From: Neoroseomonas alkaliterrae
GTDB taxonomy: Bacteria; Pseudomonadota; Alphaproteobacteria; Acetobacterales; Acetobacteraceae
Direction: 5' to 3'
NCBI RefSeq assembly: GCF_014199195.1
Contig: NZ_JACIJE010000012.1
Coordinates: 1-64,000 of the forward strand
DNA length: 64,000 nt
Shown here: piece by piece, positions 51,996 through 57,038 of the stretch
Layout: every line of letters starts with the position of its first letter
Numbering within the stretch: the stretch's first letter is position 1
Program-made: the position numbers and the translations under genes
The notes under the pieces: generated by a model
The model's database searches: none
What the model saw: only the letters and a program-made list of their open reading frames with translations
Told to the model about the DNA's origin: nothing

Positions 51996-52102
51996 CGCCC
52001 GTCGTCGCCCTTGCACGCGCCCTGGCCGATGCGAGGTAATCCGGTATGGGGTGGCACCGGCCGGCGCGCCTCCGCGACTGTCATATAGGGAGCCATGCCC
52101 GC

Positions 52103-53107
52103 ATGAGTGAAGTGGCCGAAACGCAGGATCCCGCCGCCCTCGTCGCCGAGGTGGAGGCGCTCGGCGCCCGCCTCGCCCGCGTCCGGGAGGCGGTGGGCAA
52201 GGTCATCTTCGGCCAGGACCTCGTGATCGAGCGCGTGCTGACCACGCTGCTCGCCGGCGGGCATGTGCTGCTCGTGGGTGTGCCGGGCCTCGGCAAGACG
52301 AAGCTCGTGGACACGCTCGGCACCGTGCTCGGCCTCGATGCCCGCCGCGTGCAGTTCACCCCGGACCTGATGCCGGCCGACATCCTCGGCTCCGAAGTGC
52401 TGGAGGAGGACGCGCACGGCAAGCGCGCCTTCCGCTTCCTGCGCGGGCCCATCTTCTGCCAACTGCTGATGGCCGACGAGATCAACCGCGCCAGCCCGCG
52501 CACGCAATCGGCGCTGCTGCAGGCGATGCAGGAACACCGCGTGGCCATCGGCGGGGAGATGCACGCGCTCCCCGCGCCCTTCCACGTGCTCGCCACGCAG
52601 AACCCGATCGAGCAGGAAGGCACCTACCCGCTGCCCGAGGCGCAACTCGACCGCTTCCTGCTCGAGATCGAGGTCGGTTACCCCGACGCCGCGGCCGAAC
52701 GGGCCATGCTGCTCGCCACCACCGGCGCGCGGGAGGCACGGCCCGCGCAAGCCATGACCGGCCCCGAACTCATCGCCGCGCAAGGCCTGATCCGCCGCAT
52801 CCCGGTCGGCGAACAGGTGCTGGAGGCGATCCTGAAACTGGTGCGCGGCGCCCGCCCCGAGACCTCGCCCCTGGAAACAGTGCAGAAGAACCTCTCCTGG
52901 GGGCCCGGGCCGCGCGCCGCACAGGCGCTGATGCTCGCCACCCGCGCCCGCGCGCTGCTCGACGGCCGCCTCGCACCCTCCGTGGACGACGTGATCGCAC
53001 TGGCCGAACCCGTGCTGCGCCACCGCATGGCTCTGACCTTCGCCGCCCGCGCCGACGGCGTGCGACTGAGCGAAGTGATCGAGGCGCTGAAGGACAGCCT
53101 GGGGTGA
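52103..53107 (+). CDS. MoxR-family AAA+ ATPase
   Basis: 334 residues. Walker A GVPGLGKT at 59-66, Walker B LLMADEINRASPRTQSALLQ, sensor 1 LATQNPIEQEGTYPLPEAQL and the C-terminal lid with LSWGPGPRAAQALMLATRAR are those of MoxR proteins (APE2220/RavA neighbours). These hexamers act as chaperones in assembling enzyme complexes or envelope proteins, always with DUF58 and von Willebrand-type partners. AGGGAG lies 10 bases before the ATG. First gene of the four-gene operon to 59.1 kb. Confidence 0.95.
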   Translation: MSEVAETQDPAALVAEVEALGARLARVREAVGKVIFGQDLVIERVLTTLLAGGHVLLVGVPGLGKTKLVDTLGTVLGLDARRVQFTPDLMPADILGSEVLEEDAHGKRAFRFLRGPIFCQLLMADEINRASPRTQSALLQAMQEHRVAIGGEMHALPAPFHVLATQNPIEQEGTYPLPEAQLDRFLLEIEVGYPDAAAERAMLLATTGAREARPAQAMTGPELIAAQGLIRRIPVGEQVLEAILKLVRGARPETSPLETVQKNLSWGPGPRAAQALMLATRARALLDGRLAPSVDDVIALAEPVLRHRMALTFAARADGVRLSEVIEALKDSLG

Positions 53108-53131
53108 GGGGACAGGCGGCCCGGGTCACGT

Positions 53132-53351
53132 CGGAGAGGGGCGCCGCCCCTCTCCGAACCTCTCCCCGCCAAAGGCCGAAAGGCCTTTGGAAACCAATCT
53201 CAATCGGGGTGGTGAGGGAGGGGGCGTGGCGCGCCAGTGATCGAGTGCGCGCGTGTGACGCCCCCTCCCTCACCACCCCGATCAGGTCGAGGGTTCCAAG
53301 GGCCTTAAGCCCTTGGCGGGAGGGGTCCGGGGAGGGCGGCGCCCTCCCCGG
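53132..53351. repeat. 220-base nested palindromic element (five perfect hairpins) inside the moxR operon
   Basis: Five perfect inverted repeats follow each other: an 11-bp stem (53132-53142/53146-53156), a 9-bp stem with GAAA tetraloop (53169-53177/53182-53190), a 25-bp stem with 30-base loop (53203-53227/53258-53282), an 8-bp stem CCAAGGGC/GCCCTTGG (53296-53303/53309-53316) and an 11-bp stem (53327-53337/53341-53351). Outer hairpins of the two sides also resemble each other, so the whole is one large imperfect palindrome. It fills the spacer between moxR and the DUF58 gene and ends 10 bases before the latter's start. It looks like a MITE- or REP-type element. Confidence 0.85.
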
Positions 53352-53360
53352 CGCGTGCCC

Positions 53361-54209
53361 GTGACCACCGTTCCCGTCCCCTGGGCCGAGGCCCTTGGCG
53401 CCTCGCTCCCGCCGCTTGTCGTGCAGGCCGAGCGTGTGGCGCAGACGGTCATGCAGGGTGTCCATGGCCGGCGGCGGCCGGGTCAGGGTGATGCCTTCTG
53501 GCAGTTCCGCCCCTATCTGCCGGGCGATGCGGCGGCGCGGGTGGATTGGCGGCAATCGGCCAAGTCGGACCGCCTCTTCGTGCGCGAGACGGAGTGGGAG
53601 GCGGCGCAGACCGTCGCGCTGTGGTGCCAGTCCGGGCCGGAGATGGACTGGCGCAGCGACCGCATGCTGCCCACCAAGCGCACGCGGGCGGAGTTGCTGC
53701 TGCTCGCCCTCACCTCGTTGCTGTTCCGCGGGGGCGAGAGGGTGCGCCTGTTCGGCCTGCCGCGGGCCTTCGCGGGGCGCGGCGCGCTGCCGGTTCTGGC
53801 GCAGTCGCTCCCGCGCGCCGCCGCCGTGGCGGAGGATGGGCGCATCCCGCGCCATGCGCGGGCGGTGCTGATCGGGGATTTCCTGGCGCCGCTCGAGCAG
53901 ACGCGGAAGGTCGTCGCGCAACTGGCGGCGCGGGCGGTGCGGGGCCATCTGTTGCAGGTGCTCGACCCTGCCGAGGAGACCCTGCCCTTCACCGGCCGCG
54001 TCCGGTTCGAGGGCGTCGCGACCCCCGATCATGCGCTGGTGCCGCGGGTCGAGGGCGTGCGCGCGCTCTACGAGGAACGCCTTGCGCGGCATCGCGACGG
54101 GCTGCGGGCGCTGGCCGCGGCCTCCGGCTGGTCCTTCGCGACGCACCGGACGGACCATCCGCCCGAGGCCGCGCTGCTCGCGCTGCATCGCCGGCTGGCG
54201 CCCGACTGA
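53361..54209 (+). CDS. DUF58 domain protein
   Basis: 282 residues from GTG (a second GTG lies two codons upstream; the adjoining hairpin precludes an earlier start). GQGDAFWQFRPYLPGDAAAR followed by VDWRQSAKS is the DUF58 signature (G-x3-F-x3-R-Y-x2-GD-x2-R-x-IDW). RVRLFGLPRAF and ARAVLIGDFLAPLEQTRKVV continue a von Willebrand A-like fold. DUF58 proteins are the constant partner of MoxR. Its stop overlaps the next ATG (TGATG). The ribosome binding site, if any, lies in the last hairpin of the repeat element (GGAGGG, 53331-53336). Confidence 0.9.
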   Translation: MTTVPVPWAEALGASLPPLVVQAERVAQTVMQGVHGRRRPGQGDAFWQFRPYLPGDAAARVDWRQSAKSDRLFVRETEWEAAQTVALWCQSGPEMDWRSDRMLPTKRTRAELLLLALTSLLFRGGERVRLFGLPRAFAGRGALPVLAQSLPRAAAVAEDGRIPRHARAVLIGDFLAPLEQTRKVVAQLAARAVRGHLLQVLDPAEETLPFTGRVRFEGVATPDHALVPRVEGVRALYEERLARHRDGLRALAAASGWSFATHRTDHPPEAALLALHRRLAPD

Positions 54210-56944: not shown

Positions 56945-56977
56945 GCGCCGCTGCCCTCCGCCCCGCACCCCGCCGAT

Positions 56978-57025
56978 GGCCGATCGGCCTCTGGCCGGAG
57001 GGGCCCGGGTGGCGCCGCCCTCCCG
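56978..57025. repeat. Degenerate copy of the right end of the 53 kb palindromic element
   Basis: After a 12-base palindrome GGCCGATCGGCC (56978-56989) comes CTCTGGCCGGAGGGGCCCGG and then GTGGCGCCGCCCTCCCGG, alignable by eye with the CCCTTGGCGGGAGGGGTCCG and following bases of the element's right end at 53311-53351. It ends 13 bases before the next start codon, the same placement as in the full copy. Confidence 0.5.
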
Positions 57026-57038
57026 GTAGCGAGGCCCC

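What the first reader, a model, noticed from the sequence alone, without database searches (positions are those of the whole stretch)
53132..53351. Elaborate nested palindrome filling an operon spacer between moxR and a DUF58 gene
Five perfect hairpins (stems of 11, 9, 25, 8 and 11 bp; one has a GAAA tetraloop) are packed in 220 bases, and the outer parts mirror each other. The 25-bp stem is exact over all positions, which is far beyond chance even at this GC content and implies recent spread or selection. The last hairpin ends 10 bases before the DUF58 GTG and contains the only GGAGGG available as ribosome binding site, so it may gate translation of the downstream gene. I do not recognise it as a named REP, BIME or MITE family.
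Basis: seen in the sequence. Interest (0 to 1): 0.75.

Follow-up and report, generated by a model that had tools for sequence, protein, structure and literature searches.

The report
Repeat family with triple-helix-coded hairpins
The palindrome between these two genes is one copy of a scattered, probably mobile DNA repeat of the acetic-acid-bacteria family whose hairpins each carry an extra strand that changes in step with the stem, as a three-stranded DNA helix would require.

Summary
The palindrome is real (53131-53351; exact 25-bp central stem; RNA fold z -14). It is not locus-specific: it is an inverted pair, about 220 nt, of a ~63-nt two-hairpin unit. There are 67 BLAST matches in its own genome and 79 units in a complete congener (27 pairs, all in one orientation); the unit occurs in 101 of 200 genomes of the order (29 of 51 genera). 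Orthologous sites are filled or empty. No Y1/RAYT transposase was found in 23 of 23 genus genomes.

The unexpected part lies between the hairpins. The linker after hairpin 1 is the parallel (not antiparallel) complement of the purine arm and changes with it over 45 distinct arms and several genera (0 of 2000 permutations as good; a lone odd base is in register in 35 of 37 pairs, 5.1 expected). On the opposite strand this is the purine-motif triplex code (G·G-C, A/T·A-T). The tail after hairpin 2 follows a related rule.

Closest known kind: intrastrand-triplex repeats (PIT/BoxC/TM-ECO) of enterobacteria. Different here: strand order, two triplex-capable hairpins per unit, third-strand covariation. 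The proposed gating of the DUF58 ribosome site is not supported. Triplex formation and mobility mechanism are inferred, not shown.

The parts
53131..53351 (.). Whole composite element: left unit, central hairpin, right unit inverted
   Evidence: model R1 matches 53132-53195 (+) E 5e-14 and 53291-53351 (-) E 2.1e-10
53131..53157 (+). Left unit, hairpin 1; purine core GGAGAGGGGC 53133-53142, loop 53143-53145, pyrimidine arm from 53146
53159..53168 (+). Left unit linker CCTCTCCCCG = exact parallel complement of the purine core (proposed third strand on the opposite strand)
53169..53190 (+). Left unit, hairpin 2 with GAAA loop
53191..53195 (+). Left unit tail AAACC, follows the hairpin 2 tail rule
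53203..53282 (.). Central hairpin, exact 25-bp stem (53203-53227/53258-53282) around 30 nt
53291..53316 (-). Right unit tail and hairpin 2
53317..53325 (-). Right unit linker (reads CGGGAGGGG on +): exact mirror of the purine arm GGGGAGGGC at 53329-53337
53327..53351 (-). Right unit, hairpin 1
52046..53107 (+). moxR (AAA_3 PF07726), upstream neighbour
53361..54209 (+). DUF58 gene (PF01882) from the GTG kept in relatives; alternative GTG at 53355
   Evidence: one search scanned 53364-54206

Best explanation
One copy of a family-wide, non-coding, probably mobile repeat of Acetobacteraceae. The copied thing is an inverted pair of two-hairpin units around a central hairpin, about 220 nt. SHOWN: dispersal, preferred size, preferred orientation of the pair, filled and empty orthologous sites, and a rule by which the segment after each hairpin mirrors the stem's purine arm and changes with it. 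INFERRED: on the strand opposite to the unit's + strand each hairpin carries a tethered third strand that lies antiparallel to the purine arm (G.G-C, A.A-T or T.A-T), so a unit can fold into two consecutive intrastrand triplex hairpins when that strand is single (replication, transcription, a transposition intermediate). INFERRED, weaker: the mirror code persists because this folded DNA helps a copy to spread or survive, as an end structure recognised by an unidentified non-Y1 enzyme or as protection of the ends. In the moxR-DUF58 operon the element separates genes that in the sister clade lie almost next to each other; an effect on DUF58 would be a by-product.
For: Copies. Pairs: 27 of 27 neighbouring pairs facing in G009, 24 of 27 with outer length 214-224 nt. 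Filled/empty sites. No PF01797 in 23 of 23 genus genomes. Third-strand rule: permutation tests z 23, z 8.2 in unselected stretches, z 15.0 on 119 distinct pairs with equal lengths, z 9.1 in other genera alone, 35 of 37 lone odd bases in register. With repeats of the same place removed, 212 of 283 units fit the purine code fully and 94 the pyrimidine code; loop 3 nt in 281, turn 3 nt in 232 of 283. Distinct pairs fitting fully: 57 of 119, permuted mean 13.9, maximum 24 in 1000. Tail rule z 20.7. A DNA fold of the opposite strand leaves exactly the proposed third strands unpaired.
Against: No structure was measured; 62 of 119 distinct pairs do not fit the code in full. Copies of a subfamily share descent, so cells are not independent. 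In E. coli a comparable motif was not protected in cells (PMC4666352, section 17). The first tail position breaks the rule where the 3' arm has C. No transposase, no target duplication and no excision product was found. Outside the genus a few neighbouring units are not facing (4 of 66 over all sets).
Confidence: 0.66

Rival explanations
1. Ordinary REP/REPIN-type dispersed palindrome; the arm-linker match is an inherited mark of a few founder subfamilies in low-complexity G/C tracts, without a triplex.
For: Dispersed inverted dimers, intergenic, close to stop codons as in known REPs (PMC3733652).
Against: 45 distinct arms in several genera; match survives permutation among equal lengths and with one linker per arm; a mirror relation cannot be copied by a polymerase.
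Confidence: 0.15
2. The opposite strand forms a G-quadruplex or other G-rich fold in which the two purine tracts align antiparallel; the stem is secondary.
For: Two mirrored G-rich tracts 3 nt apart; such sequences can compete with triplexes (PMC4666352, section 17).
Against: A Watson-Crick stem with a 3-nt loop accompanies nearly every unit used (though detection required a stem); the hairpin 2 tail puts T, not any base, opposite A.
Confidence: 0.08
3. The structure works in RNA: the transcribed hairpins with a pyrimidine third strand stabilise or end mRNAs at gene 3' ends.
For: Hairpin 1 faces gene ends, median 13 nt after a stop codon for single units.
Against: A opposite A-U is common (153 of 417 A cells) and does not fit the pyrimidine motif; the pyrimidine code fits fully in 94 of 283 units against 212 for the purine code; no intrinsic terminator here.
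Confidence: 0.07
4. One reading: the last hairpin hides the DUF58 ribosome binding site.
For: GGAGGG lies inside the last hairpin; the element is in 13 of 14 readable clade members at this locus.
Against: Wrong spacing, no fixed distance in relatives, right unit missing in L218 and L221, whole element missing in L225 and in 15 of 15 sister-clade loci read; many copies elsewhere.
Confidence: 0.04

Closest known systems
Intrastrand triplex repeats: PIT elements / BoxC / TM-ECO (Holder et al. 2015, PMC4666352; introduction, result sections 15-18 and the first part of the discussion read)
   Same: Intergenic G/C-rich hairpin plus third strand in one strand, purine-motif code, 3-nt second loop, inverted pairs made of two types, many copies.
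   Different: Order on the G-rich strand is third strand - purine arm - pyrimidine arm here, pyrimidine - purine - third strand in TM-ECO; two hairpins with third strands per unit; many arm sequences with matching third strands; long central hairpin. TM-ECO pattern: 0 in 1.2 Mb of two genomes and in the window.
REPIN / REP doublets with RAYT (PMC3116915, abstract start in a listing only; PMC3733652, sections 6 and 14 and passages read)
   Same: Short palindromic unit, inverted doublets of preferred size, mostly intergenic, no coding capacity.
   Different: No Y1 transposase in the genus; unit has two hairpins; no GTAG tag seen at the hairpin foot in the aligned units.
CGTC-type REPs of alphaproteobacteria (PMC3733652)
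   Same: Alphaproteobacterial, hairpin-outward dimers, no dedicated transposase.
   Different: Stems of 8-9 bp with 4-5-nt loops and a CGTC end; the authors state that CGTC repeats are missing in Acetobacteraceae (passage).
H-DNA (mirror repeats)
   Same: Homopurine-homopyrimidine mirror symmetry and the same triplet code.
   Different: Here the duplex part is a hairpin of one strand, not the two strands of the double helix.

Membership tests
REP/REPIN with RAYT | Dispersed palindromic unit, often as inverted doublet, between genes | tested here: met
REP/REPIN with RAYT | Y1 (PF01797) transposase in the genome | tested here: not met
   0 of 23 genus genomes; 2 marginal hits in 16 other copy-bearing genomes; controls ring in 5 of 14
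REP/REPIN with RAYT | GTAG guide at the hairpin foot | tested here: not met
   no conserved GTAG in 52 aligned units or the printed flanks
CGTC REPs | 8-9 bp stem, 4-5-nt loop, CGTC end, CCA tail | tested here: not met
   no conserved CGTC end in the alignment; two-hairpin unit
Intrastrand triplex motif (PIT/TM type) | Three consecutive blocks in one strand that satisfy the triplet code with short loops | tested here: met
   212 of 283 units fully, loop 3 nt in 281, turn 3 nt in 232; both units of the window fit
Intrastrand triplex motif (PIT/TM type) | TM-ECO consensus and strand order | tested here: not met
   0 matches; order differs
Intrastrand triplex motif (PIT/TM type) | Triplex forms in vitro | not testable with these tools
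   needs CD, NMR or probing
MITE | Non-autonomous copies of one size, filled and empty sites | tested here: met
MITE | Terminal repeats of a known IS and target-site duplication | tested here: inconclusive
   no duplication recognised at two sites; no comparison with IS ends made
Known Rfam RNA | Match above gathering score | tested here: not met
   13 matches, all microRNA models below gathering score

The most novel reading that the evidence does not exclude
A bacterial repeat family whose spread selects for a third-strand (Hoogsteen) code: triplex hairpins are the recognition or protection structure of a mobile element moved by an unidentified non-Y1 machinery, and the repeat is a natural record of triplet covariation across a bacterial family.
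Probability: 0.38. Interest if true: 0.85.

Novelty: new variant of a known kind. Interest (0 to 1): 0.66.

Why it matters
Whether intrastrand triplex repeats of bacteria do anything is open. The E. coli motif is a stable triplex in vitro but was not seen protected in cells, and its copies are nearly uniform (PMC4666352), so evolution could not be asked. Here stems differ widely and third strands follow them. That is the kind of evidence by which Watson-Crick stems are accepted, applied to Hoogsteen contacts in DNA. It makes triplex function testable by compensatory exchange of natural parts, and it points to an unknown way of spreading REP-like DNA in bacteria where no Y1 transposase was found.

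Tried and rejected
Locus-specific regulator: many copies elsewhere. RAYT-driven REPIN: no PF01797 in the genus. Autonomous parent element: of five interiors of 250-5000 nt only one related pair, with an open frame that looks like an ordinary gene. Watson-Crick pairing of linker with 5' arm: antiparallel match much weaker (z 5.6 in the first set; -0.6 in unselected stretches). Rfam: only microRNA models below gathering score. Intrinsic terminator or sigma-70 promoter: none. Strand bias against replication in G009: GC skew of 40 sampled stretches gave no clear origin, so not tested. Literature: nine searches listed no paper that I recognised as describing this repeat or third-strand covariation in bacterial repeats; they cover open-licence papers only, mostly seen as listings. 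Opened: PMC4666352 and PMC3733652 (named sections and passages) and PMC12306157 (outline).

Bias and recount. The 239 units come from loci fetched by similarity to the window copy, by a hairpin 2 pattern, by the Y1 search or as DUF58 neighbourhoods. The unselected set is 60 evenly spread stretches: 35 units, 29 used. The other-genus set (56 used) comes from 24 loci fetched (L380-L403) and 20 stretches placed at or near listed hits. The raw 303 units count some places twice; without repeats 283 remain. The 61 of 61 facing neighbours also hold repeats; over all sets without repeats it is 62 of 66. Negative interiors in those lists are detection artefacts. False hairpin pairs in the sets were left in. 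The ORF caller is rough: in the window it missed DUF58.

Full report
OBSERVATION. The palindrome is there and is far beyond chance. The inverted repeats, the exact 25-bp stem and the GAAA loop are confirmed; the RNA fold scores z -14.16 with 0 of 200 shuffles as good. The neighbours are moxR (PF07726) and a DUF58 gene (PF01882).

DISPERSED FAMILY. The 246-nt query gives 67 matches in the own genome, many of them both strands of one place, and matches in 23 of 39 genomes (own included; 22 of the 23 are in the genus). A hairpin 2 pattern gives 115 stretches, capped, in named genomes; their titles are Neoroseomonas, Roseomonas, Rhodovarius, Siccirubricoccus, Paeniroseomonas, Paracraurococcus and Belnapia, and two metagenome bins titled Acetobacteraceae and Alphaproteobacteria. 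A covariance model of the unit matches in 101 of 200 genomes of the order, own included, 29 of 51 genera. In a sample of 289 genomes of the class, own included, three genomes of other families have one match each. Scores stop at 150 candidates per genome, which three genomes reach or nearly reach (G165 150, G145 148, G230 146).

ANATOMY. A unit is hairpin 1 (purine 5' arm), pyrimidine linker, hairpin 2 starting CC, short tail. In the complete congener G009 there are 79 units; 54 form 27 neighbouring pairs, all 27 with hairpin 2 inside, 24 with outer length 214-224 nt; 25 are single. Over all fetched loci, repeats removed, 62 of 66 neighbouring units within 600 nt face each other this way. In the window the pair surrounds a 25-bp stem; over four orthologues that stem keeps 99% of its pairs with three pairs changed on both sides. 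Palindromes can also be kept by template switching, so this alone does not prove selection. A rough ORF caller puts 168 of 182 units between genes and 14 inside predicted genes; for single units hairpin 1 faces a gene end in 52 of 86, median 13 nt after the stop.

FILLED AND EMPTY SITES. At the moxR-DUF58 junction 13 of 14 readable genomes of one clade carry the element (two of them the left unit only) and G010 has a 16-nt spacer. 15 of 15 loci of the sister clade have none: the first aligned DUF58 residue (11, in one case 14) begins 28 or 37 nt after the moxR stop (loci were given for 30 of the 32 genomes with a match, and one of the 30 did not reach moxR). L214, L216 and L217 have unrelated central parts, which suggests replacement or a second insertion. 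At the site of L051, G015 and G040 lack exactly positions 384-634 of the query, the flanks abut, and the genes there overlap as TGATG; six further loci of the ten fetched look empty in a less exact way. I recognised no target duplication. Deletion instead of insertion is not excluded at either site. PF01797 is absent in 23 of 23 genus genomes; 2 of 16 copy-bearing genomes of other genera have a marginal hit.

THIRD-STRAND RULE. The linker is the complement of the hairpin 1 purine arm read in the same direction: GGAGAGGGGC with CCTCTCCCCG, GGGGAGGGC with CCCCTCCCG, GAGGGGAGC with CTCCCCTCG, GAGAGGGAC with CTCTCCCTG. Hairpins were detected without a condition on the linker except its length. First set, 219 of 239 units: parallel agreement 0.868 against 0.726 permuted, z 23.4; antiparallel z 5.6; one linker per arm (32 arms) z 11.1. 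Unselected stretches, 29 of 35 units: z 8.2, antiparallel z -0.6. Exchanging linkers only among distinct pairs of equal core length: 119 pairs, 45 cores, z 15.0, 0 of 2000; other genera alone 44 pairs, 26 cores, z 9.1; reversed order z 0.9 and 0.2. Where arm and linker have one odd base each, it is in register in 35 of 37 distinct pairs, 5.1 expected, over 15 cores. Among all purine-arm hairpins of 8 bp, 10 of 28 (own, 400 kb) and 10 of 22 (G009, 800 kb) are followed by such a strand, 1 and 2 by the reversed one, and shuffled sequence had no such hairpins. The tail after hairpin 2 follows 3'-arm T to A, C to C: 0.939 against 0.801, z 20.7 over 231 units; z 4.2 over 12 distinct arms; where the first position of the arm is C the rule fails there.

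READING. Without repeats (283 units) arm G is answered by C in 1724 of 1786 cells, arm A by T 211, A 153, C 34, G 19 of 417. On the opposite strand this is G.G-C, A.A-T and T.A-T in antiparallel order, the purine motif as given in PMC4666352. The pyrimidine motif would not take the 153 A. 212 of 283 units fit the purine code fully, 94 the pyrimidine code; 57 of 119 distinct pairs fit, permuted mean 13.9, maximum 24 in 1000. Loop 3 nt in 281 and turn 3 nt in 232 of 283. A DNA fold of the opposite strand pairs both hairpins and leaves the proposed third strands free. I propose tandem intrastrand triplex hairpins at both ends of the element. That they form, and that they serve spreading, is inferred.

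COMPARISON. TM-ECO/PIT/BoxC is the nearest kind (PMC4666352): intergenic, purine motif, 3-nt second loop, inverted pairs of two types, stable in vitro, no protection in vivo. Ours has another strand order, two such hairpins per unit and variable arms with matching third strands. Its pattern is absent in the 1.2 Mb scanned. A REP survey states that CGTC repeats are missing in Acetobacteraceae (PMC3733652). I file it as a new variant of intrastrand-triplex repeats with REPIN-like organisation, not as a member of the RAYT-REP families.

The ribosome-site gate is not supported.

LIMITS. Units share descent; distinct cores and genera reduce but do not remove this. Covariation is mostly between subfamilies, so it speaks for a constraint on spreading copies more than on each copy where it sits.

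Noticed in passing
window 56945-57038: The spacer between the next two genes of the same operon holds a G/C palindrome that matches the unit model weakly on both strands (E 0.08 and 0.13); possibly a decayed copy.
   Followed up: partly
L068 455-1010 and L143 3968-4525: Two units face each other across about 555 nt that are 87% identical between species and hold an open frame; it looks like a conserved gene with a unit on each side.
   Followed up: partly
moxR-DUF58 spacer in L214, L216, L217: Same site, same two-unit layout, but unrelated central sequence and other right-unit subtypes: replacement, conversion or repeated insertion at one site.
   Followed up: no
L401 771-1700: In another genus three units lie in the same orientation within about 1 kb, two of them nearly identical and 151 nt apart, unlike the facing pairs elsewhere.
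   Followed up: no
genus g1: Members with small genomes (2.6-4.1 Mb) have 0-4 matches each, members of 5-6.4 Mb have 23 or more; the split agrees with the two clades at moxR-DUF58. The own genome (4.2 Mb) is of the copy-rich kind.
   Followed up: no
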